Shown here piece after piece: positions 28,206 to 49,209 of a stretch of DNA of 64,000 nucleotides. Under the pieces are notes generated by a model. The model made no database searches. It was not told the origin of the DNA and saw nothing but the letters and a program-made list of their open reading frames with translations. Every line of letters starts with the position of its first letter. Position 1 is the stretch's first letter. The stretch is taken from the NCBI RefSeq assembly GCF_019797745.1, contig NZ_VOSI01000002.1:682001-746000 (forward strand). The letters run 5' to 3'. Origin of the DNA: Edaphocola aurantiacus (lineage in GTDB: Bacteria; Bacteroidota; Bacteroidia; Chitinophagales; Chitinophagaceae). The position numbers were made by a program, and so were the translations under genes.

Positions 28206-28206
28206 T

Positions 28207-31200: not shown

Positions 31201-34200
31201 GTGAAGCTGAAACAGGAAAAGGCCGGCAAAAGTACAGATAGGTTAATGAATCCCGTTACCCTTGCAGGTCTGAATATTGGAAGGTTCTATCTCCCCCATA
31301 TCATTTACCCGGGTTATACCGACGGGGAACTCAGCCTAAAGCAAACAATCCAGGGTATGGTAGGGGCTACAGAAGAGCTGTTTACCATCGCACAGAATCC
31401 GAATATCCGGTTTATGAAACGTGGCCTGGCAAAATCTATCGATCTGACGCGTTGCTATATCCGTGTAGGTACTCCTGGCATGTCTAAACTGGGTGGTGGC
31501 TGCCGCGTTAAACGACTGACCTTCTCAGATGGCTGGAACCAGATGACCGCTGGCGGACAGGTAAGTGTCATGGGTAAAGATTACAGTTATACCATGACAG
31601 ATGCCACCACCGGTAAGAAGATCAGTAGCGGTGTAGCCAATTATGAGCCTATGATTGGCGCCGATGAGAATCCTTGCCGTAAGCCGGTGTATTACTCCGG
31701 AGATGGCGGAAAATTACTACCTGCCGTACAACTGTTCCAGGAAGAGCCATTGGGTGAATCTTTTTATCCAGGAGGCTCAGTGGGATATAGTAAAGTCACA
31801 GTGAGCAGCATCCACAAACAAGAAGGCGCTGCTTCGAAAGGGGTGGATGAATATGAATTCTACACGGCAAAAGATTTTCCAAACTATATAGATAAAACAG
31901 TGATCAATACCGATGAGCAATACCGTCGTGGTGGTTTTGTGCAGCAAAAGGAAATCTTAAGCCTGAGCCAGGGCTATAGCCTGGTGCTCAATGATATGCA
32001 TGGAAAAAGTAAAGCCATCAGTAACTATGTGGCCAGAAAAGGCGGTGAGCAGGAGCTGATCTCTTCAGTAAAATATAATTACCAGCTAAATGCCCAGGGT
32101 AAGTTAGATAATACCGTAAGCGCTGTGGGCAGGAACAACGATCCATTTAATCCGCAGTATGAAATTGCTAATACTACACTGGGCCAGGAAGTTGACTTAA
32201 CCGTTGACTCCAGACAGCGGGTTAATAGTTCTTTATCTATACCTGTAAACTTTAACCTTAACGTTCTATTCTTTGCACCTTTTGTAGTGGTACCGGTTCC
32301 AACGGTATTTACACCGGTAAAGCAGAATATCAACACATTCAGAACCCATACCGTAACCAAAGTGGTTCAGCAATATGGTATCTTAAAATCTACAGAGGTG
32401 ACCGATCATGGGGCCAAAACGCTTACGGAAAATCTGGTATATAATGCGGAAAATGGTCAGGTTGTTGTTTCAAAAACAAATAACGAGTTTAATGATCCCC
32501 TTACTAAAATAGATTACCCTGCCAGCTGGATGCATCCTAATATGGGTGGGGCTTATGCCAACCAGGGGTATAGTTCCCGAGCCGGTCTGCTATATGTAGA
32601 TAGCGCCCTTGATGGTTATATTAAAAATATCCAGGACTTCAATTTATTTACCGAAGGGGATGAGCTGTTGGTTACAGATGACAAGGGCGCCCAGTATATC
32701 CTTTGGGTTGAGGGCAAAACTGCCTGTCCGGTTATTGATACCAGTGGCAGTGGTAGTGGTGGCGGTACTGGCGGAGGAACAGGTGGTGGCGGAGCATTGG
32801 TCACCACAATGGTACCGATCAAAGACAATCTTTTCGGGACCATTTCCTGGGGCTCTTCTACTCAATCAACAGGTTGTTGTGCATTGAAGGTTACGCCAAG
32901 AGCCAAATACCCTAATGGTGATGGTGTCAGTTGGCGCACACCTAAAACGATATTGGAAAATATTACCATTAAAGTCATCCGTTCGGGAAGGAAAAACCAG
33001 CTGGGAAGCCCAATGCTTAGTCTTAGTCTTTCCGGAAGCTATGTGCCCACAAGCTTTGCCGATCTTTTTTCGAACAGCACATTGCAGGGCAAGGTGCTTG
33101 CCACCCAGGCAACACGGTATGGAAATAATGCGGAAGAAGACCAGATTGAAGGAACATTATGGGGGGCAAACTATGGCTTCAACACCTTTGTTCGTGGACT
33201 GAAGGGGGCCTATAGACCAACTGAACAATACGGATTGTTGGGTTCCCGTGATTATAATAATGACCATGCACGTAAAAACGGAACCCTGGCATCATTTACA
33301 CAGCCCTGGAAAAATCCAAATACCATTGTACCCGGTTCTTGTCAGGACCTGGCTTCCAAATACAGCTCCGGTTGGCAAGCTGACTCTACCTGGCTACTGG
33401 CTTCTAAAATTACCAAATATGGCAGCAATGGGCTGTCACTGGAAGAGCAGGACGCATCGGGCGTGTATTCAACAGCATTATACAGCTATGGAGGGAACCT
33501 TCCGGTTGCCGTAGCCCAAAATGCAAGGTACAAGCAAGTACGCTATTTTTCGTTTGACGATATGTTCAGTCTGAACAGTGGCAACCACTGGATGATGCTT
33601 AAGTTTACCGGAAGCAGTACACCTATCTCTTACAGTCAGCTGACCAATACTTATTATAACCGGGAATTTGGCGTAAGTCCGGCAGGCACCCTTGGTTCTG
33701 GTCTGGCGATGCAAACAGAAGGCCATAGTGGCCTGTACAGCTTAAAGTTAAATGGCGGGGCCCTTAAAATTGGGGCCGGGGCAGACTTTGGCTTTGGAAA
33801 TAGCTACTATGTCAGCGCCTGGGTAAAATCAAATACTGCACCGACCAATACTTCCTTATATATAGTCGGCACAACCGGTGGTTCAACCAACAATTATTAT
33901 CCTTTTACCACCATTAGCAAACCAATCGAAGGGTGGTATAAAATGGAAGGGGTAATTACCATCCCGACCCATACAACCTTAAGCGTTGCCGGTATGGGTG
34001 GAATTGTATTTGATGACCTGCGCATATGCCCGGATAAGGCAAACATGAAATCCTTTGTATATGATGTGCTGACCAGCAGGCTCATGGCCCAGCTGGATGA
34101 AAACAACTTTGCAACCTTCTATGAGTACGATGCAGAAGGAAAACTGGTACGTACCAAAAAAGAAACCAACAAGGGTATCCTTACTTTGAGCGAAAGCAGA

Positions 34201-34218
34201 ATGTCTGCAGCCAAATAA
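28207..34218 (+). CDS. Giant RHS-type shell protein without a toxin tip
   Basis: The start is set at ATG 28207, right after the lipoprotein stop, giving 2003 residues with a signal peptide ('LTAKTMFTVLALELVSPAIRSYA'). The N terminus 'PSQPEVQSFEPVGTTDMVDLFSGDFVYNIPLLDVEGYPVNI' plus 'ASWVGLGWNINPGAINR' is the SpvB-like opening found in Bacteroidota RHS systems. A Gly/Ser/Thr-rich linker (32739-32799) marks a domain border. The C-terminal part has a carbohydrate-binding-like beta domain ('GLYSLKLNGGALKIG', 'YYVSAWVKSNT', 'GWYKMEGVI', 'GIVFDDLRI') and ends in 'RLMAQLDENNFATFYEYDAEGKLVRTKKET', a single YD-type motif. It lacks the RHS core and any toxin tail, so it resembles a TcB-like partner of the RHS protein downstream. 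Confidence 0.75.
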   Translation: MMMKYNSQLFRLTAKTMFTVLALELVSPAIRSYALTSGPSQPEVQSFEPVGTTDMVDLFSGDFVYNIPLLDVEGYPVNIAYHSGSNVESEASWVGLGWNINPGAINRSVRGIPDDFSGEQIEKQLHVKDETTVGLKLGADVELFGLEFLRGGIGNSITYNNYKGMGVGFDASLNLKTNYVTTGLGLTVGSQEGATLDANLSTNASDGAGVSGSVQGSTGFNTRSGLRDLSYGISTNQFPLTFNSYIPIGLRNYVSTITNATHARGISFSTGLGMEVLGTFPHFRTEVSGSVTHHEEDGSMPAYGYLYLEKSGERSITDFSREKDGIYNKSLPNLPLSSLTYDLYSISGQGTGGMFRPFRNDIGTVSDPKLDSDNDNFSSNVEAGFGTGFGGLFEIGTNVNMLFYSMKTGAWKKRPFLASQTGSLFENVFFKQAGELTRSVGSGEAITSGKEPLRVDSSMNMFNKQRAAIGLLPRFIGQHEDRNPRANNMSVFTNKEAITPGVAIHQKIENYPRNQFTGNPQVEKVDRLKTNTKQIDAAKPNHIGEISQILPDGRRYIYSIGARNNVQREVTFSTGYKEMSDPAYTSGLISAYSDQENSYANPSGRDRYYQSTTTPSYVHSYLLTDVLSADYVDITGDGPTEDDHGTYTKINYSRTSKDFKWRTPYERPGEKRAQFSPGYYSDKGDDKANYIVGSKEMWYIHSIESKNYIAEFYTSPRKDGMGYKGSLGVDNVSGDIGSDTSQRLYRLDSIKLFSKRDRFINGANATAIKTVVLVYEENAANQLCPGIPNYTGANSGIGKLTLKRIYFKFGNSNRSLLNPYEFNYSAFNPSYNFMAKDRWGNYKPAVGGLSNYEFPYVTQNKAAADSSAMAWQLTEVKLPSGGSINVQYESDDYSYVQDKRAMEMFKVSGVGADKNFIAKSELYEGEGENIINNYIYFKRDTAREISGRSLKENYLPEDDLLYFNFFVDIGNKNAYEPIKAYGKVEEIGKCTNDSLYGYVKLKQEKAGKSTDRLMNPVTLAGLNIGRFYLPHIIYPGYTDGELSLKQTIQGMVGATEELFTIAQNPNIRFMKRGLAKSIDLTRCYIRVGTPGMSKLGGGCRVKRLTFSDGWNQMTAGGQVSVMGKDYSYTMTDATTGKKISSGVANYEPMIGADENPCRKPVYYSGDGGKLLPAVQLFQEEPLGESFYPGGSVGYSKVTVSSIHKQEGAASKGVDEYEFYTAKDFPNYIDKTVINTDEQYRRGGFVQQKEILSLSQGYSLVLNDMHGKSKAISNYVARKGGEQELISSVKYNYQLNAQGKLDNTVSAVGRNNDPFNPQYEIANTTLGQEVDLTVDSRQRVNSSLSIPVNFNLNVLFFAPFVVVPVPTVFTPVKQNINTFRTHTVTKVVQQYGILKSTEVTDHGAKTLTENLVYNAENGQVVVSKTNNEFNDPLTKIDYPASWMHPNMGGAYANQGYSSRAGLLYVDSALDGYIKNIQDFNLFTEGDELLVTDDKGAQYILWVEGKTACPVIDTSGSGSGGGTGGGTGGGGALVTTMVPIKDNLFGTISWGSSTQSTGCCALKVTPRAKYPNGDGVSWRTPKTILENITIKVIRSGRKNQLGSPMLSLSLSGSYVPTSFADLFSNSTLQGKVLATQATRYGNNAEEDQIEGTLWGANYGFNTFVRGLKGAYRPTEQYGLLGSRDYNNDHARKNGTLASFTQPWKNPNTIVPGSCQDLASKYSSGWQADSTWLLASKITKYGSNGLSLEEQDASGVYSTALYSYGGNLPVAVAQNARYKQVRYFSFDDMFSLNSGNHWMMLKFTGSSTPISYSQLTNTYYNREFGVSPAGTLGSGLAMQTEGHSGLYSLKLNGGALKIGAGADFGFGNSYYVSAWVKSNTAPTNTSLYIVGTTGGSTNNYYPFTTISKPIEGWYKMEGVITIPTHTTLSVAGMGGIVFDDLRICPDKANMKSFVYDVLTSRLMAQLDENNFATFYEYDAEGKLVRTKKETNKGILTLSESRMSAAK

Positions 34219-34247: not shown

Positions 34248-34979
34248 ATGAGAAAGCAATATAAAATCTTACTGGCGCTGGTACTCACCGGGTCTGCGGT
34301 TGCCGGGGCAGTGATCCGTCAATATGGTGGAAGGGAAGCAGAGCGTAATAATCCGGTTTACAATGCGATGCTGGAAAAAACATTTAGCGGTGAGCACTTA
34401 TCGTACCGCTACCAGGTAACGGTATTTAATGATAATGGCCCGGTTGATACTACCTGGGGAGCCATCTATAAGGCCGGCACAGACTATATAGATAGCAATG
34501 ATATGTACTATAAAGCCCTTACCGGGGACGTATTTGTCAATTTAGACAGAAGAACATCCGTTGCCTATTATGCCTTTTTAAAAGATGTGGAACAAAAGCT
34601 GGGATTTAAACGGGAAGATATGAACGCAGAGCTGTTTAGCCTTCCGGATTCAAGTCTGGCAAAGATTGGCCATTGGAAACCAATTGAACAGCTGAATGAT
34701 TCCTTAAGCGCGATAGAATTTGAAGTAACCGATAGTACCCAGCAGTTACAAAAAGCCAGATTTGTGATCCACCGCAACCGCCAGCAAATCGTTTCCGGAC
34801 AGCTAACACTTGGACCGGGAACGGTGTTGGGCGACCAGAGCGCGGAGATTGAAATGTCTGAAATCAGCACTGTTCCGGTAGATACCCGCGCGAGAACAGC
34901 AGAGCAGTTTTCGCTTAATAACGGGGTCTTAAAACCATCGGCATCTATGGCTAAATACCATGTACAAAAATTATTCTAA
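34248..34979 (+). CDS. Small exported protein between the two giant RHS genes
   Basis: The 243-residue protein has an N-terminal signal or anchor helix ('ILLALVLTGSAVAGAVI', residues 7-23). A mixed alpha/beta domain then resembles small envelope proteins with a LolA-like curved sheet ('LSYRYQVTVFNDNGPVDTTWGAIYKAG', 'LSAIEFEVTDSTQQLQKARFVIH'). There is no lipobox. It lies 29 bp after the shell gene and 23 bp before the toxin gene, so it is part of the operon and could serve as chaperone or assembly factor. That role is inference; no family was recognised. Confidence 0.6.
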   Translation: MRKQYKILLALVLTGSAVAGAVIRQYGGREAERNNPVYNAMLEKTFSGEHLSYRYQVTVFNDNGPVDTTWGAIYKAGTDYIDSNDMYYKALTGDVFVNLDRRTSVAYYAFLKDVEQKLGFKREDMNAELFSLPDSSLAKIGHWKPIEQLNDSLSAIEFEVTDSTQQLQKARFVIHRNRQQIVSGQLTLGPGTVLGDQSAEIEMSEISTVPVDTRARTAEQFSLNNGVLKPSASMAKYHVQKLF

Positions 34980-35002: not shown

Positions 35003-38000
35003 ATGAGAAAAATTGCTCAATATATATATCAATTTATTTTACTGGTATTATGTACCGGTATGATCGGGTACGGTCAGGATATTAAGTTTCGTCCGGACCA
35101 TGAATCAAAAGCATATTATTCCCGCAGTATTAAAACCATGGGATCACCATCGGGATACAATGATCTGCTGGGTACTACCAGTGCATTTGAATGGTTCGAA
35201 ATGACCTCAATTCCTTCCTCCTGGTCTCAGAAGTATACATTCAAAAGCGTATCCAATTACATTAAGGTAGCTATAGATCATAATGCAAAAGATGTAGTGA
35301 GCAATTACAAATACCAGCTTACATTCCAGGTTAAAGGATATAGTGATCCGGCCAGTCCGGGTACCTATACCACCCAAAACCATATCATTACCCTTGAATA
35401 TAATAAGGATTCCCTGGCTGCCTATAAGGATGCAACCCTGCTTAAACTACCGGGAAGCGGATTTTATTCCTTTGATCTTACCTTAATTGATGTTCAGGAA
35501 ATCAGTGGCTCCAGTCCTATGGCAGTCTCTAAATCAGGTCTGGCCCCAAACTTTTATATCCAGGCTGAGGTGGTAACCCAGCGCTATGATGATGATCTAT
35601 CTGGTAAAATGATTTTCGTCAATTCGGCTTACCACAGCGCCAGCCAGGAACTGGAGGTGAGATGGGGGAATTACGCACCATCGGAAGTAAGCAGCCTGCC
35701 CTCCGGATTTATGCCGATGTATGATAATTTTAAACCGGTGAAGTATGAACTGGAGTGGACTTATATAGATGATTATAAGCTGAATGATTATAATCATACA
35801 AGCGGAAGTGCGGGGTATAAAAATACGGCAAGTACCTTTTCTGTACCTTATAATTTCAAAAATAATGCTACACGAATCCAGACGGAGAACAACTATTTCT
35901 TTATCCCGGTGGTTTATGGACATGGCGCAGTTGTATTCCGTGTAAGAAGGATCCGTCCCGATAATGTCAACTTTACCGATCTTGTTTATTCCGATTGGAA
36001 CCTTCCGGAGTCAGGAAACCTTACTAATACCTCATTCGGAACAGGCGGTCTTAATGTCAATCCTTATCGCGCACCTTCAAATTGTATCCTGATTGTAGAA
36101 ACGCCCCATCAGAGTGATAGTGTAAACTACCAGTATAGCATCAGTTTTGCGGAAGAAGGTAAGTATAAGCATGTACTGAATTACTTTGATGGTATGGGAA
36201 AGAATCGGCAAACACAGACAAAAATTAATTCAGACCTCAATTATGTGGTGGCAATAGATAAAATCTATGATTTTGAAGGGCGTCCGGCCATTACTACATT
36301 ACCAACACCGGTGCTTAGCAGTAATTTGCAGTTCAAAAGCAACCTCTCTTTACATGCAGGAACCAACCAGCCCTATAGGGCTCCAGACTTTGACACCGGT
36401 TGCGTAACCGATACAGTAGCCCCTTTTGCATCAGTTGCGCTGGCAAGTGTATATTATTCTGATCAGAACACAGATAAATCCGGGATGCAAAAATTTGTGC
36501 CTGACGCGGGAGGTTATCCATTTATTCAGACCATCTATTCTCCTGATTATACCGATAAGGTACTCTGGCAGGGTGGAGCCGGGAAGAATTTTCAGCGTGG
36601 TAAAGACCACGGAACCCGATATGCTTATGTCCGGGCCGGGCAGAATGAGCTCAACAGATTATTTGGAACCGAGGCCGGCTATTTCCAGTATTACCCTAAG
36701 CAGGTAACGGTAGACCCGAATGGGCAGGCCAGCTTTGCTATTGTAAACCCTGCAGGGAAAACCGTGGCAACGGCCCTGGCTGGAACTTCACCTTCTTCAC
36801 TGCTATATCCTATTGATACGCTCGCAGATATGGCTTCAGCAAGCTATAAAGTGCAGGATATTTTAGCCGGTAACCTGCAGCAGATAGATAATGGCTTGCG
36901 CCGTGCTGAATATAGTTATTATAATGAAGCGGTGGGTTTTAACGGCCTTCGCTATAGTGCGGATATTGCTCCGTTCCCTACCGGATGTGGCAACCAGTAT
37001 ATCAATATTGCCGGAAAGCTGAATTATAAGATCATAGACGAGTGTGGTGGCATATATTTATCTAAGTCAGATGTCGCTGGTACTAACTCGGTTACTACCA
37101 GTAATCAGCACCAATATTACTGGGGAACTAAAGATTCTGTTCAGCTGATGCCCGGAAAGTATACGATCATTAAGGAGCTCAGCTTTCCGGATAGTACTAT
37201 CAGGAGTATGGCTTCTTCATTTGTCGACAATAATACCGGAAATGGCCTGTGTTATACAGGTAAAGAAGTATTTATCCGGAGCGAAATTGAAAATACAAGC
37301 TTTCCATGTCCTCCTTCTGATACCTTTAATGCCTGTGACGCGCTGCGCCAGAGACTGAAATCAGAGCTGTATCCCGGAGCTAAGTACGGACAGTACATTA
37401 AAGCGGATGACGGCTCATTTATTGCCGGAAGCGGTAACTCTATTTTTACCTATTATGATGTGTATGATAGCGTTAGCTATTACTGGGAGCATACCGATAC
37501 GCCAAAGATCGGCGATCGTTGTAAATACAAATTAAGGATTGATGACTGGCAAGATGAACCGACTGTACCCGGATCTAATCTGCTGTTAACCGAAATGGGT
37601 AGTGACAATAAAATACCATGGGTATGGTATGATGAGGTAATGGCGCCATATCCTCAGGGTGGTTATTTTTATACGGGCTCTGCACCATATAAAGTAAAGC
37701 ACACCTATATCGATACGCTTTACTGTGAAACAAAAAAAGCCTATTATCCCAATGCGGTAAATGTGGGTAAATGCCTCTATCATGTCTACTACCTCGGAAA
37801 TTGTTCTGTTCCCGGCTCTACTGGCGGATCCATGGCTACTGGAACAGATAAATATATCTGGGCAACAAGCCTGGCCGAAATTCCAACTTCAACGGTGGTT
37901 ACCCAGTCAGTGCCTATAGGTAACTTTATGTCGAAAGTGAACTGTACGGTATATCTGGATACAACGAACTATGAAATTATTGAGTGTAATGATGGAACGC

Positions 38001-41000
38001 CCTATTACCGTTACCAGGTTCCCTGTTTAAACGGCTTAGACCTTCAGCTGGAACAAATGGATGTCTATGGACAGATCAGCACCCTGACTGTAGCCCTTGA
38101 GGATGCTTCTCCCGAGCAGTTAATTCAAGGGTTTAACGATAATGTTGCTGAAACATTACTGCCATTGCATCCTGAATATTGTAAACTGCTGGCCTGTGAT
38201 ACAGGCAATTTTGAGGCCCGCTTGTCCGGACTGGAAACATACGATCAGGCAGTCTCTCTAGGCTTGCATACCCTTTCCGGTATTGTTGCTCAAGATCCTT
38301 TATGTACTGCCAATAAATCAGGCGCACCCTACAGTGCCGATCAGTTGTCTTATTTCGCGGCTGATGGAAGCCTGAGCGCATCCAATGCCGCGCTGCTCAA
38401 ACGCTTTGACTCGATGGCTGTTGCACAGGCATATTGTGGATGTAATTCAGCAGAAGCAACCGTTTATTGCCGCGAACAGCAGTATCAGAGCCAGATCAGC
38501 AGCATGACACTGGCCAGTAAGGAAATTAAGGATTTGTATATTAAATCCCTTAAAGCCCTATACCTGGCCAACCGGGGTTTACTGAAACAAAGGTTGACAG
38601 ATGGAGCAACGGCCGATTGCGGACCATGTGACAGTTTCCGCATGAACATGATTGGCATGCCTAATTTTACAACCATTTTTGATGCAAACGGAGATGTAAC
38701 CAGTGATTATATAGACCAGGATGTGAAAGATCTGATTAACAGCAGAAAAAATAATACCAGCGATACATCTCGGCCGGCAATGGTTGCCGGTATGGTTTCC
38801 GGTGGCAGTCAGGATTTCTGTAAACACCAGATCGCCATTATAATGGAAGACCTTAAAAGTTGCGGTAATTTGGACAGTGCGGAACTAGCCGGCATGGGCA
38901 CCTATCTGGAATCATTTTGTACAGGCACTTCCATGGGCGAAAATATTACCCCGGACATTATCAAAAACAAGCTCGTAGCCATGGGCAAGTACGATGACAT
39001 GTGTGGGCCTTTCCTAACCAAATATGCTGTATTTAATAAAAAACTGCTGACAGAAAAAGGTAGTTATATTGCTAAATCGCCTGAGTTCTACCAGGGTCTG
39101 GGTGACTTTATGAACCGTATAGATGTTACCAATGCATTATTAAATGCCCAGGCGACAGGCAGTGGTTCTGCTTCAATAACGATTACTAATAGTAATGTAT
39201 TTGAAAAGGCGCTGCTTACCCGGTTTGCATTATCCAGTGGAAGTAGTATTAATATTAATGGTTTCGTAACTACCTATCCGATCAGTGCCGGCAATACGGT
39301 AAATGCAACAGTATATAAACTGGCAATTACTTCCGGTAGCCTGAGCGATACGCTGTTTCTTGCAGAGCGAAACGTAGCGGGTAATGTACTGGCCAGCCCC
39401 TTAAAAGAAACCGATCCTTTAGGCGCCACTTTATTTACTTATATAAATTTTAGCAACAGTCATAACCTTTTTGCCGATAGCCTTACTTATGGCCTTGCCG
39501 AAGGTGGCGTGGCAGATAATCTGGCCTACATTACCTTAAATAAGCAGGTTGTGGTACAGTCAACGGGTGCTACGCGTAATACCAGCACTTTGTATAATAT
39601 CTGGAGCCATAACCTCCCTATGATGGACCCAAGAAGTCCGGATGGGGTAGAGGAGTGCGTTAACTGTGAACTGTTGCGCCGGGCAGTTGCCGACTATTAC
39701 AGTGCTGCCGCTACTTACCTTATGCCTACCAATGCTGCACACCCGTTTTTTGAGACCAGCCTGCAAAACTACCTGAACTATAAACTGGGTAAAAAACATG
39801 GCATAGAACAGTATGAAGCGCTGGCAGCAGGCTGTGGCCTTACCGATAAGATTGCCATAACCGGATCTCCCGCTACCGTGCAGGTAACTTTTGCCACCGC
39901 TGGCGCCACAGACTTTAGTCCTGCCAAAAGCTTTGTTCAATCACTGCAGCAGGCTTTCCCTTATGTGCGCATTGATCATTTTATGTTCAAAAATATGTCG
40001 GATAATAAGGTGACGGTATGGTTTGATCTGGCAACGATCAGCGATAGAGACACCATCAGAAACCTTAGAAATTATATCCAAACCAATGCGGGGGCAGGGG
40101 TTTACCAGTACCTGCCTGCAGGTTACAGTGCGGAATTGTTTAAACAAAATGGTGCCGCACCGGCGATTAGTGGAGGGGCAGTCAGCAATCAAAGTGTTCG
40201 CATACTGAACCAGGATGGAAGCTATAGCGATGCAACCCGTTATATGATCGATGCAACAGGTACGTTGCCCATAGATAAAGCAAGCGTAAGCCAGGCGGTA
40301 TTGAATTTTGCGGGGACTGATACCACAGCGACCTATATAAAAATTGTATTGGGTAATAAATTATACCGAAGCAGCGATTACAATACGACCGATAAGCAGG
40401 CTTACCTTACCTATGTATATGGACTCTCAAGCCTTAGTGAAAGTGAGGTTGCTGCAGCCCTTGCTCCGGCAACCCTGCAACAGCAGATCAGTGCATTTTC
40501 CTCAACAGACCTGAAACTGAGTTATAACAGCCCCTGGTGTACCGACAATAAGGGTAGCTTGTATTACTGGAATAAGAACCAGGGAAGCCACGGTGGATTT
40601 CAGCGCCTGAACACCTTACTGGGCCAGGTAAAAGCCAGCCTGGGCAGTAATAAGTTATTCCCTGCTGCTGCTACCGTAAATATCAGTGGAAACACTGGTA
40701 GTGGCAATGCATCGGTAAAAGCCTTCCGCCAGGGGAATGGAAATGCCTGGTACCGTATTTTTGATACGGACAATAAACTATACAATATCTATATCACCCC
40801 ATCTGTAAAGATGGCCGGTCCTGCCCAGGAGTATGCCATGCTCAGCGTGAGTCCATCTGTATATACAACAGAAGGCGCAACTGATGTATACCGCTTTAAT
40901 GTGCTCATGGCCCGCGGTACCGATACGGTAACCGTTTATGGATATACTGACTTCCCGATTGCTGCTGGAAGCAAATTGCAGGATGTAGTGCTGCAGGATA

Positions 41001-44000
41001 ATTATGGGCAGCAATTACAATGTATCGATACCAATAGTTGTGAGCACAGTAGCCTGCTGGCTGCGGTGGAGCAGGGTACCCAATTGCACTTTACCTATAT
41101 CGATTCTGTGAAGGCAGGTCTTGCCGCTGCCATGGCATGGTTTTACCCTAAAAATGCGATAGACACCTTGCAACATAGCATGCAGTCCCAGCAGTATCAC
41201 TACACTCTATACTATTATGACCTTGCCGGAAATCTTACCCGTACTGTACCGCCGGCAGGGGTACAGGCCCTGGGAACTGTAGCAACTGCTGCAGTTGATG
41301 GCGCCCGTAATGCCAGCTCATCGGTTACCAACCTGAGTATGAAAGCTGAACATAATAAGGCCAGTAACTATCGCTATAACAGCTTTAACCAGCTGGTATG
41401 GCAGCAGACGCCGGATGGGGGCATTACCGAGTTTTTCTATGACAAGGCTGGTCGCCTGGTGTTCTCACAAAATGCTGTACAACGCGCTGGAAAAAAGTAT
41501 AGTTATACCTTATATGACGACCAGAGCCGGGTGGTGGAAACAGGACAGATTACCGGAGATACGACCCTTTCTGTAGGTCAGCACCCGGTATTTATTACAA
41601 ATCTGTTCATGAAGAATATGAACGGGGCCGGTAGCATTGCCGATTGGGTTAAAGTTAAAGTAAGGGAAGAGGTAGTGGCTACCCGTTATGACAAACCATT
41701 GATCTCCCTGCAAGGATTCGATAATATGCTTTCCGATCAGCAGAACCTGCGTAAGCGGGTGAGTGCAATCCTGTATAGCCCGACGGTAACCACGCAGATG
41801 TCTATCGACTCCTATTATCACTATGCGACCCACTTCAGTTATGATGCCATGGGCAATGTGCAAACGCTTACCCATGACAACCCATACCTGGATTACATGA
41901 AACAGCGCTTCAAACGGATTGACTACGATTATGACCTGTTGAGTGGTAAGGTGAATATGTTGAGCTATAACCGCGGCTTTGCCGACCAGTTCTACCAGCG
42001 TTACGATTACGATGCTGATAATCGCCTGGTAGCCACGTTCAGCTCCAAAGACGGGCTGGAATGGGACCGTGATGCGGCTTATGCCTATTATAAGCATGGT
42101 CCGCTGGCCGAAGTGCAGTACGGCGACCTGAATGTACAGGGCGTACAGTATGCCTATACCATTCAGGGCTGGCTGAAAGCCATTAATGGGGACGGCCTAA
42201 ATACCGATCGCGATATGGGCCATGATGGTGTAGATAGCGTATACCCGGCCGATGTGATGAGCCATACACTGGATTATTATGCCAGTGATTATAAGGCCAT
42301 AGACCCGGCTGCCAGCGTAAGCACCCTTCCAAATCCTACGCGTTCCCTGTACAATGGTAATATTGTGCGCCAGGCTACCGCTACGGTGGGCAGCCCTAAT
42401 ATGGTGCGCGACTATACCTATGACCAGCTGCACCGGATCAAAAAGACAGAGTACAGCCTGTATGATAATATTACTATGGCGATGACCAGCATGGTTGATG
42501 CCTATAAAAATACGTACAGTTACGATCCTGACGGCAATATCCAGACCCTGACCCGTAATGACGGAGCGGGTAACCCACTGGATAACCTCAGTTACCATTA
42601 TCTAAATGCCAGCCAGAATAATAAACTGGGCTATGTAAGCGATGCGGTAAGCACCACCGGTGGCAATGACCTGAAAAATAACCAGGCCACCGGCAACTAT
42701 ACCTACGATGCCATTGGTAACCTCAAGAGCGACGCCAGTGAGGGTATTAAGGATATCCGCTGGAATGTGTACGGTAAAATGCTGACCTTAAGTAAGGGTA
42801 CTACCCAGGAAGACACAATGCAGCTGCAGTTTGCCTACGATGGTATGGGTAACCGTATCCGTAAAGACTACTGGCAGAATATCGGCAGTGGTAATACAGG
42901 AGCGTTGCGTACCAGCGATATTTATGTGCGTGATGCCCAGGGCAATATCCTTGCAGTATATAAAGAGAAAGCAACCATTAATGGTAGCAATACCATAGAC
43001 TGGTTGAATGATCAGCTGATTATGTCTGCTACGGCTACAGAGCTGGCTCCTTTCTACACCAACCAGGTGGGCAGCAATGGTGCTTTTGTCAATGACTTTA
43101 TGAACCAGGTGGTGGGTACCAACGGCAGCTGGGCTTATAATAAAATCATCAGCAAATCGACGGCTTATTATATGAGCCAGTCGCAGCCGATGTATGGTCA
43201 GGCCCTGCAAATGTACCTGCCCACCAGTTATGGAGATATTGTAGCTACGGACTGGAATCTGATCGGCAATGCCTTTATGGGAACACCGGAAAAAACGATG
43301 CGCGCCGGCTACTTGATCGAAAACCTGACCAATGCTGAGAATGATGCGGAATCGCGGAGCCAGACCCTTTTGCACCTGGTAAGCGATACCCGCGCGCTGG
43401 CTGATGATCTGCTTGCCAATATGGGCTATGATCCCGAAGGTTTGACCGAGTGGGATAAAGTTATGGCCATGCAGAACTTTATTGAAGAGCACGGAAGTAG
43501 AGATTTTGGTAATCTGTTCGTGGATAGAGTAAGGGATTATGACCCATCACCTTTCTGGGAAAATATGCTTAAGGATCCTGTGGTGTTGCGCCAGGATATA
43601 CTCGATAATATCCGCCCGGTGACCGAGGCCCTTATTGATGGGCTTGCTGACCGTACCGATGGCAATAACGAAGACCTGATCGGCTATATGGCCGATTGGA
43701 TGGACGGTAATGACCCCGGAGTATTCCTGGGCCAGTTCAGCCCTGCGACCAAACTGAATGTGATCTATGATGAAGATAAACCCTTATTTTTACAAACCTA
43801 TATCGGCACTTACGGTATAGCCAATGTAAGTCATGCGATCAAAGCCATACCAGGAGTAACAGCCATATCGGTGAACAGCTGGATTGTAAATGCGGCCAAT
43901 AATGGTATACTGCCGATGTCGGTAATGCAGTTTGTAAATACACCAAATCCACAGAATATCGATGCCGATACGCTATACCTGGCCGAGCATCACCTGTATG

Positions 44001-45298
44001 GCAGCAGCAGACTGGGCATCAAGTACTACCAGCCGGAACAGTATAGAAACATCTATACACCCGGTAGTCCAGTGGTACAGGGAGCCAGTGCAAGAGTGCC
44101 CTGGTACAGCCTGGCCTACGAGGAAATGGTGAAGAAGGGTGTACGCAATCCGCAGAGCCCTGCAGACCGTCTGGTGGATTCCTTTGCTACGGTAAGAACA
44201 CTAGGAACTAAAGAATATGAACTTACCGATCACTTAGGGAATGTACTAGCTAATGTACTTGACCGTAAGACGGGCTATGGTGCAGCCAATTTATTGTACA
44301 AAGGCTTCCATGCCGATGTAAGCAGTACAACGGATTATTATCCGTTTGGGTTTGGGATGAATGAGCGGAGTACTGGAAGTGGAGGAAGGTTCGGATTTAA
44401 TGGACAGGAAAAGGATAATGAAGTAAAAGGTAAGGGTAATCAATTAGCATTTGAATTTAGAGATTTTGATCCTAGATTAGGGAGATTCTTTGCAGTGGAC
44501 CCACTTTCGCAAAAGTATCCATATTATACACCTTATCAATTCGCGGGAAATCGAGTAATATCAAGTATCGATATTGAAGGACTAGAGGATTTGTATTTTA
44601 TGGATCAAAAGATTGAATCCATTAAAGGAGAACCAGTTGTTACGATAATTAATGGAGTTGAAACCATGCAACAAGAAATGGCAGATTTTAAAAATCCCGA
44701 TATAAATAAAGGTTATAATATAATAATATTAGATGGATTCCAAGAGGTGAAAAATGAGTCAATGTCTTCTAAGGCATTTAGAGGGATGGGGAAAGCTTAT
44801 ACAGGGCCTCGATTAGATGCAAAGATGGTGGAAATGTATAGCACTGGTGTCCTAACGGCAAATGATGATATCTTTACCCCAGAGGTTATGGGTAGCAGGG
44901 CATTTAAAGAAACTGTAGCGCAAAAAAGAGGTGTTGTATTTATTTATTTACCTAAAGGAACAGTCGAAAAGTCTAGATTAGCAGCAAAGCAATTAGACGA
45001 TATATATGAAAGATTTAAATTTTTTGATGCAGCAAATACTATTATTCATGAAGCGATTGCTCACGCGTTTAGAAGAGTTAAATATGGAAGTAAATTTACA
45101 GAAGAGCAAGATCACGATACGTTCTTTAAAGATGAAAGTTCTGATGTTAAATGGGATGCAAGTAAAGGTACATCTCCCCAATATACCTATATAAAAGATC
45201 ATCTTCCAAATTCAGTTGCAGGGAAAATTCAAAGGGAGATTGATAGGCAAATTGAAAATATGAAAAGCAACAGTAAATCTAAAACAAAATCAAAATGA
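35003..45298 (+). CDS. Giant RHS polymorphic toxin with HExxH metallopeptidase-like C-terminal tip
   Basis: The 3431-residue protein has a signal peptide (1-25, ending 'GYGQ'), then beta domains with 'YFDGMGKNRQTQTKINSDLNY' (about residues 394-414), a Cys-rich central part, and YD-type repeats from about residue 2065 ('YYYDLAGNLTRT', 'EFFYDKAGRLVFSQ', 'YDYDADNRLVATF'). The RHS core ends with 'YELTDHLGNVLANV' and 'FNGQEKDNEV', 'FRDFDPRLGRFFAVDPLSQKYP..TPYQFAGN' (3070-3185). After 'DIEGLEDLY' composition turns AT-rich and the final 240 residues form a variable toxin domain with 'NTIIHEAIAHAFRR' (HExxH, 3349-3353), a zincin-like zinc site. About 320 residues (2672-2990) are inserted between 'DAQGNILAVYK' and 'HLYGSSRLG'. 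The family delivers toxins to competitors. The target is unknown. Confidence 0.8.
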   Translation: MRKIAQYIYQFILLVLCTGMIGYGQDIKFRPDHESKAYYSRSIKTMGSPSGYNDLLGTTSAFEWFEMTSIPSSWSQKYTFKSVSNYIKVAIDHNAKDVVSNYKYQLTFQVKGYSDPASPGTYTTQNHIITLEYNKDSLAAYKDATLLKLPGSGFYSFDLTLIDVQEISGSSPMAVSKSGLAPNFYIQAEVVTQRYDDDLSGKMIFVNSAYHSASQELEVRWGNYAPSEVSSLPSGFMPMYDNFKPVKYELEWTYIDDYKLNDYNHTSGSAGYKNTASTFSVPYNFKNNATRIQTENNYFFIPVVYGHGAVVFRVRRIRPDNVNFTDLVYSDWNLPESGNLTNTSFGTGGLNVNPYRAPSNCILIVETPHQSDSVNYQYSISFAEEGKYKHVLNYFDGMGKNRQTQTKINSDLNYVVAIDKIYDFEGRPAITTLPTPVLSSNLQFKSNLSLHAGTNQPYRAPDFDTGCVTDTVAPFASVALASVYYSDQNTDKSGMQKFVPDAGGYPFIQTIYSPDYTDKVLWQGGAGKNFQRGKDHGTRYAYVRAGQNELNRLFGTEAGYFQYYPKQVTVDPNGQASFAIVNPAGKTVATALAGTSPSSLLYPIDTLADMASASYKVQDILAGNLQQIDNGLRRAEYSYYNEAVGFNGLRYSADIAPFPTGCGNQYINIAGKLNYKIIDECGGIYLSKSDVAGTNSVTTSNQHQYYWGTKDSVQLMPGKYTIIKELSFPDSTIRSMASSFVDNNTGNGLCYTGKEVFIRSEIENTSFPCPPSDTFNACDALRQRLKSELYPGAKYGQYIKADDGSFIAGSGNSIFTYYDVYDSVSYYWEHTDTPKIGDRCKYKLRIDDWQDEPTVPGSNLLLTEMGSDNKIPWVWYDEVMAPYPQGGYFYTGSAPYKVKHTYIDTLYCETKKAYYPNAVNVGKCLYHVYYLGNCSVPGSTGGSMATGTDKYIWATSLAEIPTSTVVTQSVPIGNFMSKVNCTVYLDTTNYEIIECNDGTPYYRYQVPCLNGLDLQLEQMDVYGQISTLTVALEDASPEQLIQGFNDNVAETLLPLHPEYCKLLACDTGNFEARLSGLETYDQAVSLGLHTLSGIVAQDPLCTANKSGAPYSADQLSYFAADGSLSASNAALLKRFDSMAVAQAYCGCNSAEATVYCREQQYQSQISSMTLASKEIKDLYIKSLKALYLANRGLLKQRLTDGATADCGPCDSFRMNMIGMPNFTTIFDANGDVTSDYIDQDVKDLINSRKNNTSDTSRPAMVAGMVSGGSQDFCKHQIAIIMEDLKSCGNLDSAELAGMGTYLESFCTGTSMGENITPDIIKNKLVAMGKYDDMCGPFLTKYAVFNKKLLTEKGSYIAKSPEFYQGLGDFMNRIDVTNALLNAQATGSGSASITITNSNVFEKALLTRFALSSGSSININGFVTTYPISAGNTVNATVYKLAITSGSLSDTLFLAERNVAGNVLASPLKETDPLGATLFTYINFSNSHNLFADSLTYGLAEGGVADNLAYITLNKQVVVQSTGATRNTSTLYNIWSHNLPMMDPRSPDGVEECVNCELLRRAVADYYSAAATYLMPTNAAHPFFETSLQNYLNYKLGKKHGIEQYEALAAGCGLTDKIAITGSPATVQVTFATAGATDFSPAKSFVQSLQQAFPYVRIDHFMFKNMSDNKVTVWFDLATISDRDTIRNLRNYIQTNAGAGVYQYLPAGYSAELFKQNGAAPAISGGAVSNQSVRILNQDGSYSDATRYMIDATGTLPIDKASVSQAVLNFAGTDTTATYIKIVLGNKLYRSSDYNTTDKQAYLTYVYGLSSLSESEVAAALAPATLQQQISAFSSTDLKLSYNSPWCTDNKGSLYYWNKNQGSHGGFQRLNTLLGQVKASLGSNKLFPAAATVNISGNTGSGNASVKAFRQGNGNAWYRIFDTDNKLYNIYITPSVKMAGPAQEYAMLSVSPSVYTTEGATDVYRFNVLMARGTDTVTVYGYTDFPIAAGSKLQDVVLQDNYGQQLQCIDTNSCEHSSLLAAVEQGTQLHFTYIDSVKAGLAAAMAWFYPKNAIDTLQHSMQSQQYHYTLYYYDLAGNLTRTVPPAGVQALGTVATAAVDGARNASSSVTNLSMKAEHNKASNYRYNSFNQLVWQQTPDGGITEFFYDKAGRLVFSQNAVQRAGKKYSYTLYDDQSRVVETGQITGDTTLSVGQHPVFITNLFMKNMNGAGSIADWVKVKVREEVVATRYDKPLISLQGFDNMLSDQQNLRKRVSAILYSPTVTTQMSIDSYYHYATHFSYDAMGNVQTLTHDNPYLDYMKQRFKRIDYDYDLLSGKVNMLSYNRGFADQFYQRYDYDADNRLVATFSSKDGLEWDRDAAYAYYKHGPLAEVQYGDLNVQGVQYAYTIQGWLKAINGDGLNTDRDMGHDGVDSVYPADVMSHTLDYYASDYKAIDPAASVSTLPNPTRSLYNGNIVRQATATVGSPNMVRDYTYDQLHRIKKTEYSLYDNITMAMTSMVDAYKNTYSYDPDGNIQTLTRNDGAGNPLDNLSYHYLNASQNNKLGYVSDAVSTTGGNDLKNNQATGNYTYDAIGNLKSDASEGIKDIRWNVYGKMLTLSKGTTQEDTMQLQFAYDGMGNRIRKDYWQNIGSGNTGALRTSDIYVRDAQGNILAVYKEKATINGSNTIDWLNDQLIMSATATELAPFYTNQVGSNGAFVNDFMNQVVGTNGSWAYNKIISKSTAYYMSQSQPMYGQALQMYLPTSYGDIVATDWNLIGNAFMGTPEKTMRAGYLIENLTNAENDAESRSQTLLHLVSDTRALADDLLANMGYDPEGLTEWDKVMAMQNFIEEHGSRDFGNLFVDRVRDYDPSPFWENMLKDPVVLRQDILDNIRPVTEALIDGLADRTDGNNEDLIGYMADWMDGNDPGVFLGQFSPATKLNVIYDEDKPLFLQTYIGTYGIANVSHAIKAIPGVTAISVNSWIVNAANNGILPMSVMQFVNTPNPQNIDADTLYLAEHHLYGSSRLGIKYYQPEQYRNIYTPGSPVVQGASARVPWYSLAYEEMVKKGVRNPQSPADRLVDSFATVRTLGTKEYELTDHLGNVLANVLDRKTGYGAANLLYKGFHADVSSTTDYYPFGFGMNERSTGSGGRFGFNGQEKDNEVKGKGNQLAFEFRDFDPRLGRFFAVDPLSQKYPYYTPYQFAGNRVISSIDIEGLEDLYFMDQKIESIKGEPVVTIINGVETMQQEMADFKNPDINKGYNIIILDGFQEVKNESMSSKAFRGMGKAYTGPRLDAKMVEMYSTGVLTANDDIFTPEVMGSRAFKETVAQKRGVVFIYLPKGTVEKSRLAAKQLDDIYERFKFFDAANTIIHEAIAHAFRRVKYGSKFTEEQDHDTFFKDESSDVKWDASKGTSPQYTYIKDHLPNSVAGKIQREIDRQIENMKSNSKSKTKSK

Positions 45299-46122
45299 TA
45301 AAAATAGGATTATTAACCGGTTTAGTTTTTTTAGTTTCTTTCTGTCATGGACAAAATCCAAATTTTCCCTTTTATGGAAAATTCATAAAACAGGAACTTC
45401 AGAATATAGACTTAACATTATACTCCAAGATTGAGCTTTTAAAAGTGGAAGGAAATGATACTTTTAAATATCAAGAATATATAATTTCAAATGGAAAGCT
45501 TAAAAAAGAAATAGAATATACAAAAACAAACGACGGTAATTTGTTAACAAATGAATTGCTCTTTAATTGGAACAATGATCATTTACAATCAATGGCGATT
45601 AAAAGAGATGATAAGGATTCAATATTTTATTTATATGAATATAGGTTCCCTCAAATTACTTTATGGGAGAAGAGAAGAGAAAAAACTACTCTTCTATCGA
45701 TTCAGAAATTTAATAAAGATTCAACCATAAATGTTGAGAAAAGGATGGATGCAAATGGCAAAGTTTATAACTGGGTTGAGTTCTTATATTCAAAAAAATC
45801 CATGTCGCGTAAACTTTACGAAGGAAAACGACTTCAATCGGAAACAATTATTAGCGAACTTGATCCTTTTAACGAAATTGAATATTTTTCGGATTATAAT
45901 GATTTTTCAAACGGGATTCAAAATGAAAATAATAACAAAATAACACAATTTGAAAAGAAGACCCTAAATGGTCTTAATCAAGTTGTTCAAAGGGTTGTTT
46001 GCTTTAGTGATGGTGATGTTATAGTTTACAATTATTCATATAACAACGGACTATTAAGCTCAATAGGATCAATATTGAGTAATGGCAAAAAAAAATTGAT
46101 TATTTATAAATATTATAAATAA
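45295..46122 (+). CDS. Probable immunity protein for the RHS toxin, exported
   Basis: This 275-residue, strongly AT-rich gene overlaps the toxin stop by 4 bp (ATGA), the usual toxin-immunity arrangement. A signal peptide (residues 1-20, 'LLTGLVFLVSFCHGQ') points to the periplasm or outside. The Cys is preceded by Phe, so it is not a good lipobox. The body has repeated 'Y..NGkL..e..y' and 'ysnGlL.sig' strands reminiscent of MORN/YwqK-type antitoxins of Bacteroidota. Export of the immunity protein implies that the toxin acts outside the cytoplasm, which fits an extracellular or periplasmic metallopeptidase. Immunity function is inferred from position and composition. Confidence 0.6.
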   Translation: MIKIGLLTGLVFLVSFCHGQNPNFPFYGKFIKQELQNIDLTLYSKIELLKVEGNDTFKYQEYIISNGKLKKEIEYTKTNDGNLLTNELLFNWNNDHLQSMAIKRDDKDSIFYLYEYRFPQITLWEKRREKTTLLSIQKFNKDSTINVEKRMDANGKVYNWVEFLYSKKSMSRKLYEGKRLQSETIISELDPFNEIEYFSDYNDFSNGIQNENNNKITQFEKKTLNGLNQVVQRVVCFSDGDVIVYNYSYNNGLLSSIGSILSNGKKKLIIYKYYK

Positions 46123-46446: not shown

Positions 46447-49209
46447 ATGAAATATAACCTCAATAAAAAAGTCCTTTTTAGGACACCACAATTTCCTATC
46501 AATGCTAAGCTTGAAGACTGCTGGGATGACCTAAAAGCCTCAATTAAGATATCATCGCCTGACTTTTATAAGATTATAGAGCACATGCATTTTGAAGATA
46601 TCGAAAATGACTCAAGGCCAGTGCAGTACACGATCGCTAAGTATTTTAATCGTGCACGGTTTCGCCCTACGCCTTATGGCACTTTTGCAAGTATCGGAAT
46701 AGCTGGCCTAGGGAATCCTGGAGATATCCTAACCCTAAATGATAAAATGATCAGGCACTCCTTTCTTGACTGGCGGGAAATTATTGAATTTCAGGATCAG
46801 TGGTCACAATATTCGATACAAGATCTTTGTTTTCAATCTAATTCAGCCAGTTATAAATGCGGTGAACTGATACGATGTATTTATAAGAATGGGGAGCAGT
46901 TTGAATTAAGTGATATTCCATATTATCAAGTTATTGTAGACTTGATTGAATTCTGCACGGAAACTAGATCTTTCATGGAAATCAAAGCTCGTTTTCTTGC
47001 AGATTTTGAGAGTGAATCTGATCTGAAAGAAATACTTGTAACGCTTATTATAAACCAACTGATATTTACTAATTGCCAGGCAAGCATTATTGATGACCTT
47101 CATAAATTAGAGTGCTTCCCCGGTCGGGTAAGAACTTATGATATTTGTCAAAGAACAAGTGATAGCGGTTCAATCCATTTTCCATACGAAGTTGAACTCA
47201 AGGAATTGATAACTTTTCTTTCTGGACAATACTCAAGTTCAGAGCCTGAAGATCTGATACGGTTTAAAGATCGGTTTTTAAACCAATACGATCAGCGGGC
47301 CATTAAATTGCTGGAAGCCCTTGATCCCGAAATGGGTATCGGATATGGGGACCTGGAAAATTATAATGGAGACGAACTTATAGATCTGTTTACGGGTTTT
47401 GAGTCAATTAAAGAAAAGAGCCCTGATCTGTCAGAATTGTTGAAAAAGAGTCTATTCACAAAAGCGACTTTGCCATCCGTTATTCATCTGGAGGACTACA
47501 ATGATCTTAAAAAGAAAGAGTGGCATAAAATACCGAACACATTTAACGCTATAGTCAGTCCTGCGGGCGATGGCTATTTTGTCAGTATGTTAGGGGGGGC
47601 ATCTGCCAATTCCATTTTAGGTCGATTCAATCTGGTAGACGATGAAATTCTTATGTTGTGCAGAGATAATGCGAGGTTAGAATCTGAAGCTAATCCAGAG
47701 GTGCTCTTTTTTGATATTGCTTATTGTGGCGAGAGAAATGTCGATAATATCAATAGGAGGAGACCAATTTATGATTATCAGGTTTCTATTCATTCCTTTT
47801 CAAAAAATACAGCCCAAATCCCTTTAAATGACATTTATATAGGAGTCCGTTCGGCTGAGGTCATATTGTATTCAAAAACATTAAAAAAGAGACTTATTCC
47901 CAGACTTTCCAGTGCTTATACTTATACACGTTCTGATCTTTCTTTATTCCGGTTCCTATGTGATATACAGAGCCAAAATATCAAGCTCTCTTTAATCCCC
48001 AATTTAGATACTGCGTTTGAAAACGTAGACTTTAAACCCCAAATCCGCTTCAAAAATTTGATACTATCACCTGCAGGTTGGAGAATTAGGCTCGAAGATT
48101 TTCCTGTTTCCAATGAAAATTTTAAAAATGGGGTAAGCCTTAATGGGAGGTATCGTTTTGTAAAAATTGGGTATGCTGATCAAACACTACATCTGAATAG
48201 TGGTTCAGTGGAGGATTTGGATCTAATCTATTCGATTCTGAAAACCAAAAAGGAACTTTGGATACAGGAGAGCTTTACCCAGGAAGAAATTCTGATCCGT
48301 GATTCAATTGGTAATTCCTATGCAACTGAGCTGGTATTAAGTATTTCCCATAATAGTACCATTTATCCTGGTGTAAGACTGAATAGCAACGAAACAAATG
48401 TGCAGAGGACCTTTTTGCCTGGAAGTGAATGGATGTATTTTGAATTGTTTATACATCCATGTAAGGCAAACGAAGTACTAATTGCCCAAATATCTTCTGT
48501 CTTAAACCAACTTAAAGGTAAGATTCAGAAGTGGTTTTTTATCCGGTACAATGAGTCTGGGGATCACCTTAGGCTACGACTTCAGTTAAATGATTTATCC
48601 GATTATAGCATGGTAATGGAATTTATACAAAAGTTTTTTGCTGAGATAAGAGACAGAGGCTTTCTGAAAGATTTAAGAATATGTACTTACAGGCGGGAAT
48701 TGGAGCGTTATGGTTCTAATATCATAGATCAGGTCGAAGAGCTGTTTTGTCATGATTCAGTATATGTTCTGCAGGTTATTAAAAATCTCCCTGATAAAGT
48801 TACACTTTATCTGAATACAGTTGACATAATGATCAGGGTGGGAAACTCCATTTTTGGAAAGTTGGAATTACAACCTGTTTTTAGTAAATTGTTATCAGTC
48901 CATAATAATGAACATAATTTAAATTCGAAGGCATTTAAAGCCATCAATAGCTTTTATAAGATAGAGATTAGGCCAAGGCAAGCAGAAATTTCAACCGTGT
49001 CGGAAATTGAAATTACAAATGCCTATATTGCCGTTCTAAGGCCTCTTGCACGGGAGAGGCAGATTCAACTATTTGCAGATTTTTTCCATATGCATATAAA
49101 TAGACTCTTTTCCGATAAGCAAAGAGAACATGAGACTATTATATATAATCTTTTGATGAACCGGATCAAGGAGATTCAATTCAAGCGAACTTCATTAATG
49201 GAAGGATGA
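46447..49209 (+). CDS. lanB: Class I lanthipeptide dehydratase (LanB), full length
   Basis: The 920-residue protein contains the N-terminal glutamylation domain, with 'ARFRPTPYGTFASIGI' at 70-85 (the family's 'sRpTPfGlFa' motif). It also has the C-terminal elimination (SpaB_C/thiopeptide-type) domain from about residue 654 ('RTFLPGSEWMYFELFIHP', 'WFFIRYNESGDHLRLRLQL', 'YRRELERYGS'). LanB enzymes use glutamyl-tRNA to dehydrate Ser and Thr of a precursor peptide in the cytoplasm. The length is usual for an unsplit enzyme. The precursor gene lies 1.85 kb downstream beyond a two-component pair on the other strand. Its 3' end overlaps the response-regulator gene by 15 bp tail to tail. Regulation by that pair is suggested by the repeats at 46382. 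Confidence 0.9.
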   Translation: MKYNLNKKVLFRTPQFPINAKLEDCWDDLKASIKISSPDFYKIIEHMHFEDIENDSRPVQYTIAKYFNRARFRPTPYGTFASIGIAGLGNPGDILTLNDKMIRHSFLDWREIIEFQDQWSQYSIQDLCFQSNSASYKCGELIRCIYKNGEQFELSDIPYYQVIVDLIEFCTETRSFMEIKARFLADFESESDLKEILVTLIINQLIFTNCQASIIDDLHKLECFPGRVRTYDICQRTSDSGSIHFPYEVELKELITFLSGQYSSSEPEDLIRFKDRFLNQYDQRAIKLLEALDPEMGIGYGDLENYNGDELIDLFTGFESIKEKSPDLSELLKKSLFTKATLPSVIHLEDYNDLKKKEWHKIPNTFNAIVSPAGDGYFVSMLGGASANSILGRFNLVDDEILMLCRDNARLESEANPEVLFFDIAYCGERNVDNINRRRPIYDYQVSIHSFSKNTAQIPLNDIYIGVRSAEVILYSKTLKKRLIPRLSSAYTYTRSDLSLFRFLCDIQSQNIKLSLIPNLDTAFENVDFKPQIRFKNLILSPAGWRIRLEDFPVSNENFKNGVSLNGRYRFVKIGYADQTLHLNSGSVEDLDLIYSILKTKKELWIQESFTQEEILIRDSIGNSYATELVLSISHNSTIYPGVRLNSNETNVQRTFLPGSEWMYFELFIHPCKANEVLIAQISSVLNQLKGKIQKWFFIRYNESGDHLRLRLQLNDLSDYSMVMEFIQKFFAEIRDRGFLKDLRICTYRRELERYGSNIIDQVEELFCHDSVYVLQVIKNLPDKVTLYLNTVDIMIRVGNSIFGKLELQPVFSKLLSVHNNEHNLNSKAFKAINSFYKIEIRPRQAEISTVSEIEITNAYIAVLRPLARERQIQLFADFFHMHINRLFSDKQREHETIIYNLLMNRIKEIQFKRTSLMEG

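What the first reader, a model, noticed from the sequence alone, without database searches (positions are those of the whole stretch)
44389..46122. RHS toxin tip with HExxH motif and exported immunity protein, AT-rich and sharply bounded
Base composition and codon use change right after the RHS core end (near 44,400), and the tip encodes IIHEAIAHAFRR, a zincin-type metal site. The partner gene overlaps by ATGA and has a signal peptide. Together this suggests a recently exchanged metallopeptidase cassette acting in the periplasm or on the surface of target cells.
Basis: partly seen in the sequence, partly recalled or inferred. Interest (0 to 1): 0.7.

Follow-up and report, generated by a model that had tools for sequence, protein, structure and literature searches.

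The report
RHS toxin tip with stretched zinc-site motif
A giant bacterial RHS surface toxin carries a swapped-in end piece that looks like a zinc-dependent protein-cutting enzyme with an unusual, one-residue-longer metal motif, next to an exported gene that probably protects the producer.

Summary
The RHS tip, the ATGA-overlapping partner with a signal-like N-terminus, and the sharp composition step are real. Two labels are wrong. The motif is H-E-A-I-A-H, i.e. HExxxH, not HExxH. The step (GC change point 44,394; interval 44,368-44,436) lies inside the RHS core, at its FGFNGQEKDNE motif (from 44,390); the core ends near 44,584. All 7 comparable locus pairs from the genus lose DNA identity between that motif and the core end, so it is the likely exchange zone. 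Across 117 RHS tips, metal-motif tips with a detectable partner have a signal-like partner in 19 of 19 cases, against 35 of 89 for the others. Best reading: an RHS polymorphic toxin with a new HExxxH zincin-like peptidase tip acting outside the cytoplasm, guarded by an exported immunity protein. Both AlphaFold models were useless (mean pLDDT 39 and 37), so fold and catalysis remain inferred.

The parts
35003..44389 (+). RHS body: signal-like N-terminus, DUF6443, RHS repeats
   Evidence: ORF; Pfam DUF6443 E 2.9e-9 and RHS_repeat E 7e-8
44336..44584 (+). RHS repeat-associated core
   Evidence: TIGR03696 E 1.3e-10
44390..44422 (+). FGFNGQEKDNE: likely exchange zone inside the core
   Evidence: GC change point 44,394; 7 of 7 pairs lose identity between here and the core end
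44585..45298 (+). Toxin tip of 237 aa, HExxxH family
   Evidence: relatives G244, G165, Aureibacter; alignment A2; leave-one-out profiles
45047..45064 (+). HEAIAH = HExxxH, residues H3349, E3350, H3354
   Evidence: sequence; invariant in 4 of 4
45113..45115 (+). H3371, candidate third metal ligand
   Evidence: invariant in 4 of 4; role inferred
45295..46122 (+). Partner gene, predicted exported immunity protein of 275 aa with N-terminus MIKIGLLTGLVFLVSFCHGQ
   Evidence: ORF; signal-like by hydrophobicity; no relative in 244 family genomes

Best explanation
An RHS polymorphic toxin with an exchangeable toxin-immunity cassette. Shown: a DUF6443/RHS body with a signal-like N-terminus is joined, at the FGFNGQEKDNE motif of its core, to a core-end + tip + partner cassette of different composition; relatives carry other cassettes there; the tip belongs to a small divergent family in which H-E-x-x-x-H and a third His never vary. 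Inferred: the tip is a zinc-dependent, zincin-like peptidase whose active-site helix has one extra residue between Glu and the second His, as in dipeptidyl peptidase III. The protein leaves by Sec, the RHS shell holds the tip, and the tip, released after the core, cuts a protein outside the cytoplasm of a competing bacterium. The partner is secreted to the producer's own periplasm or surface and blocks the tip there. The way across the outer membrane is open: the T9SS protein SprA is present, no T6SS sheath protein was found.
For: HExxxH plus third His in 4 of 4 members with pairwise identity down to about 20%; each member recognised by a profile of the other three at 2.5e-11 or better, best of 115 other tips 0.043. 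Three of the four His of the window tip are the invariant ones. Signal-like partner for 19 of 19 metal-motif tips against 35 of 89 others, p 5.6e-7; 15 of 15 against 30 of 82 tip clusters, p 2.2e-6. HExxxH occurs by one inserted residue in an M91 tip, L114, and is a working or predicted zincin motif elsewhere (PMC10499314 and PMC5512222, passages). Swap zone. SprA present, PF05591 absent.
Against: No known peptidase family matches. Profile comparison with M91 is not significant (E 0.08, probability 0.7%). Both structure models are unusable. In a comparison with 115 single tips the best score was a metal-motif tip aligned at HE..H, but the overall shift is weak (one-sided p 0.027) and several non-metal tips score nearly as high. 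The window's partner has no relative in 244 genomes, so immunity rests on gene position. Signal peptides were judged by a hydrophobicity rule, not a trained predictor.
Confidence: 0.6

Rival explanations
1. The tip is a metal-dependent hydrolase other than a peptidase, for example one acting on peptidoglycan or lipid, using the same HExxxH...H site; the partner is still an exported immunity protein.
For: The conserved residues fit any metal hydrolase; envelope targets fit an exported partner. Other exported-partner tips here include one with an HGCMRIN stretch, L,D-transpeptidase-like by recall (L020).
Against: H-E followed by His on one predicted helix is the zincin signature, and 17 of 117 tips of this survey carry plain HExxH, so peptidases are common in these proteins.
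Confidence: 0.2
2. The tip is a cytoplasmic toxin or binding domain of unknown activity; the HExxxH pattern is structural, and the signal-like partner is an unrelated exported or membrane protein.
For: HExxxH arises by chance in about 0.5 of 117 shuffled tips; 35 of 89 non-metal tips also have signal-like partners.
Against: The motif and a third His are invariant across very divergent members; all four partners are signal-like, and those of G244 and G165 look homologous.
Confidence: 0.15
3. The cassette is inert: a decayed or non-toxic tip kept by chance.
For: No assay exists; the delivery route is unknown.
Against: Intact 3431-aa frame and overlapping partner, conserved putative site, swapped tips and silent cassettes: hallmarks of polymorphic toxins in PMC3482391 (passages).
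Confidence: 0.05

Closest known systems
RHS polymorphic toxins with zincin tips (Tox-MPTase1-5, Tox-HopH1), Zhang et al. 2012, PMC3482391 (passages read)
   Same: C-terminal tip on an RHS body, next to a likely immunity gene, exchanged as a cassette; predicted metallopeptidase
   Different: All their listed motifs are HExxH (or HEELH), and no immunity family is listed for Tox-MPTase1-5. Here HExxxH, a third His, and an exported partner
Peptidase_M91 (PF14891) tips of RHS proteins
   Same: RHS tips of the same bacterial family; one of them (L114) has HELLSH, an HExxxH made by one inserted residue
   Different: No Pfam match for the window tip; hhalign not significant; third motif differs (xEN against a His)
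Dipeptidyl peptidase III, M49
   Same: HExxxH spacing in a zinc peptidase (PMC10499314, passages)
   Different: No Pfam M49 match; position five is Ala, not the Gly of HEXXGH; M49 is not a toxin tip
HEXXXH metallopeptidases of polyvalent proteins, PMC5512222 (one passage read)
   Same: HEXXXH zincin-like domains in genomic conflict proteins, with a predicted bend in the helix
   Different: Found in phage and conjugative proteins; relationship to this tip not tested, since their alignment was not at hand
TANFOR polymorphic toxins, PMC7073777 (outline and section 9 read)
   Same: Large Bacteroidota toxins, most with a periplasmic signal peptide, with a downstream immunity gene; T9SS export is speculated there
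   Different: No NCBIfam hit in the first 1,666 aa of this protein; this one is DUF6443/RHS

Membership tests
RHS polymorphic toxin system | RHS repeats and RHS-associated core before the tip | tested here: met
RHS polymorphic toxin system | Tips differ between relatives after a shared body | tested here: met
   7 of 7 pairs with at least 85% upstream identity have different tips; G240
RHS polymorphic toxin system | Adjacent immunity gene that neutralises the tip | not testable with these tools
   Adjacent overlapping gene present; neutralisation needs an experiment
Zincin HExxH peptidases (incl. Tox-MPTase1-5) | HExxH | tested here: not met
   HEAIAH is HExxxH, also in the three relatives
Zincin fold | Strand-helix core with the metal site on the helix | tested here: inconclusive
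   mean pLDDT 38.9 and 36.8
Peptidase_M91 | Match above the Pfam cut-off | tested here: not met
   0 families for the window tip; hhalign E 0.08
Peptidase M49 (DPP III) | HEXXGH and a match to the family | tested here: not met
   HEAIAH; no Pfam match
TANFOR toxins | N-terminal TANFOR domain | tested here: not met
   No NCBIfam match in residues 1-1666; that the library holds the TANFOR model is recalled, not checked

The most novel reading that the evidence does not exclude
The tip founds a new family of HExxxH zinc peptidase toxins in RHS proteins, with HExxxH...H as its metal site. It is part of a wider rule in these bacteria: metallopeptidase tips are always coupled to exported or lipoprotein immunity proteins, so these RHS proteins deliver peptidases to the periplasm or surface of rivals rather than to their cytoplasm.
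Probability: 0.45. Interest if true: 0.6.

Novelty: new variant of a known kind. Interest (0 to 1): 0.47.

Why it matters
If true, it adds a metallopeptidase toxin family that an HExxH search would miss. It places the swap zone of these RHS toxins inside the core, so a tip boundary drawn at the core end misses about 65 residues of the exchanged piece. It also gives a simple genomic rule (exported partner means extracytoplasmic target) for sorting the many unknown RHS tips of Bacteroidota. PMC3482391 calls Imm65 the only lipoprotein-like immunity protein in its collection (passage); here 8 of 19 partners of metal-motif tips have a lipobox-like site.

Tried and rejected
HExxH label: rejected, the motif has one more residue. 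Core end at 44,400: rejected, the core match runs to about 44,584.

Tip as an isolated orphan: at first supported (no hit in viral contigs, in plasmids, or in genome contigs twice), then overturned by the two-sequence profile over 394 family genomes and by a plasmid search with the G244 tip. The same profile found no credible new member in samples of 298 order and 395 phylum genomes. Weaker hits: G355 (E 2.5e-4) proved to be a helicase-like protein and was dropped; the other ten (E 0.006-0.08) were partial matches and were not followed. Plasmid searches with the G165 and Aureibacter tips gave nothing beyond the Aureibacter plasmid itself.

Excess of HExxxH tips as evidence by itself: rejected, because two of the four (window, G244) entered the survey through this tip; 2 of 115 remain, which is not an excess. 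L049 (HEEGHED) was moved to the 'other' group by my judgement as a chance-like match; its partner is not signal-like, so keeping it would make the rule 19 of 20. At a hydrophobicity cut of 2.0 the split is 17 of 19 against 34 of 89, p 6.3e-5; with added position and charge rules it is 18 of 19 against 30 of 89. The survey is not a full sample: 149 core-bearing ORFs, from which 16 duplicate, 7 cut, 4 core-cut and 5 short tips were dropped; only part of the places listed were fetched, and that call left further matches unlisted.

An IS1-like transposase in the window, or remnants of other cassettes just behind the partner, were sought and not found. Paper searches: no held paper holds RHS, HEXXXH, toxin and metallopeptidase together; this says nothing of papers not held.

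Full report
What is there. The window belongs to a 3.69 Mb genome (G000, contig C2) of a family whose members are rich in RHS proteins (core match in 66 of 98 sampled genomes). That the family is Chitinophagaceae is my guess from the sequences and comes from no call. The giant RHS gene 35003-45298 and the gene 45295-46122 overlap by ATGA. The RHS protein has DUF6443, RHS repeats and the RHS-associated core and a hydrophobic N-terminus typical of Sec export (seen in the sequence).

Motif. The residue numbers given (H3349, E3350) are right; the second His is H3354.

Boundary. The most likely GC change point is 44,394 (two-log-unit interval 44,368-44,436). This is the start of FGFNGQEKDNE (44,390), inside the core, whose profile match ends near 44,584. 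The core part after the motif already has tip-like codon use (GC3 0.200 against 0.470 for the body). A change point on GC3 alone is less sharp (44,369, interval 44,159-44,420; or 44,183, interval 44,156-44,372, when only codons from 1,700 on are used). Of 117 tips, 34 had the motif in a form that could be anchored. The 7 pairs among them with at least 85% identity in the 90 nt upstream, all from the five genomes of the genus, all have different tips. Identity falls below 0.75 by the bin at +30 in 5 of 7 and by the bin at +90 in all 7, i.e. before the core end at about +195. One pair is a silent cassette of this genome against another species of the genus (98% upstream). G165 holds a silent cassette whose frame opens just before the same motif. 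So the exchange unit is core-end + tip + partner.

Alternative tips. Congener G240 has the same upstream genes and a syntenic giant RHS (46.6% identity over about 2,725 aa) that runs off its contig. Two short contigs of G240 with a matching core hold three tips: a nucleotidyltransferase-like one with a cytosolic-looking partner, an HExxH one with a signal-like partner, and an unknown one, with IS1-like transposase genes between or beside them (these names are recalled, from reading the sequences). That these tips belong to the syntenic gene is inferred. The window's own genome also has a second giant RHS with a HEFFHGMGLDH tip and two silent cassettes.

Relatives of the tip. G244 was found with the tip alone (E 5.8e-4; 2 of 394 genomes, the own one included); G165 with the two-sequence profile (E 6.3e-35); an RHS protein on Aureibacter tunicatorum plasmid pAT2 with the G244 tip (E 3e-3, 96% of the query), present twice on that plasmid. 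Each of the four is recognised by a profile of the other three (window 2.5e-11, Aureibacter 1.5e-13, G244 4.5e-40, G165 2.6e-42), while the best of 115 other tips reaches 0.043. Window and Aureibacter are not similar by direct BLAST (E 0.19), so their link runs through the other two. Fifteen columns are invariant, among them H155, E156, H160 and H177 of the tip (RHS 3349, 3350, 3354, 3371): HEAIAH, HEVAQH, HEMDFH, HEVYLH. The window tip has four His in all, three of them invariant. All four partners have signal-like N-termini; those of G244 and G165 look homologous, the other two do not clearly align.

Families. For the window tip there is no Pfam, PHROGs or PADLOC match, in NCBIfam only the core, and in PDB sequences nothing meaningful (best E 0.032, a gyrase chain; the four-member profile 0.71). 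Other members give only matches of E 0.0056-0.1. M91 comes closest in kind: the L114 tip is an M91 member (E 5.9e-10) whose HELLSH aligns to HExxH with a single extra residue. Of the 19 M91 matches in 147 genomes, 15 show HExxH in the matched stretch, one HExxxH (the same tip as L114), two have QELIH there, and one could not be read. HExxxH is a known zincin motif in DPP III and in tubulin carboxypeptidases (PMC10499314, passages) and a predicted one in polyvalent proteins (PMC5512222, passage); some DPP III enzymes have the five-residue form instead (PMC5805324, PMC9820243, abstract starts in the listing). Profile comparison of this tip with M91 is not significant.

Partner rule. Among 117 distinct complete tips, 17 have HExxH (mean 0.49, at most 4, in 500 shuffles) and 4 have HExxxH (mean 0.50, at most 3), two of these being the window and G244. 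With one chance-like HExxH match set aside, partners of metal-motif tips are signal-like in 19 of 19 (one tip had no partner), against 35 of 89 for the others (8 without) (Fisher p 5.6e-7); per tip cluster 15 of 15 against 30 of 82 (p 2.2e-6). The measure is a hydrophobicity rule, and partner choice by script is crude.

Structure. Two AlphaFold jobs gave mean pLDDT 38.9 (two sequences) and 36.8 (single). Both put the motif in a long helix after a strand, but at this confidence that carries no weight, and no fold search was run.

Mechanism. Export by Sec, shielding by the RHS shell, release of the tip at the core end, metal-dependent cleavage outside the cytoplasm, and protection by an exported partner are inferred from anatomy and precedent. 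SprA of the T9SS is present; the T6SS sheath family PF05591 is not found in this genome, while the same search finds it in E. coli. T9SS export of such toxins is only speculated in print, for TANFOR toxins (PMC7073777, section 9).

Noticed in passing
G000:C2:116000-122200 (L008): Second giant RHS with a HEFFHGMGLDH tip, followed by silent core-tip-partner cassettes and IS1-like transposase genes (transposase family recalled).
   Followed up: partly
window 46447-49209: Lantibiotic dehydratase (Lant_dehydr_N and C) directly downstream of the cassette, with a response-regulator and histidine-kinase-like pair beyond it on the other strand; a possible RiPP locus.
   Followed up: no
L114 / L150 (G029:C30): M91-type RHS tip with HELLSH, a natural one-residue insertion in the zincin motif.
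   Followed up: partly
L149, L152 (G003:C28, G002:C12): Two M91 matches with QELIH in place of HExxH: possibly altered or inactive sites.
   Followed up: no
L020 (G031:C1:697869-698069 region): RHS tip with an HGCMRIN stretch, L,D-transpeptidase-like by recall, and a lipoprotein-like partner: another likely envelope-acting tip.
   Followed up: no
L174 (NZ_AP025307.1, 164000-178900): Aureibacter plasmid pAT2 carries two copies of a short RHS core-tip gene near tyrosine recombinases, in a repeated stretch.
   Followed up: no
window 28120-34218 and 34248-34979: A 2032-aa protein and a 243-aa exported-looking protein lie upstream of the giant RHS and keep that order in congener G240; no clear family except a weak CBM_4_9 match to the first.
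   Followed up: partly
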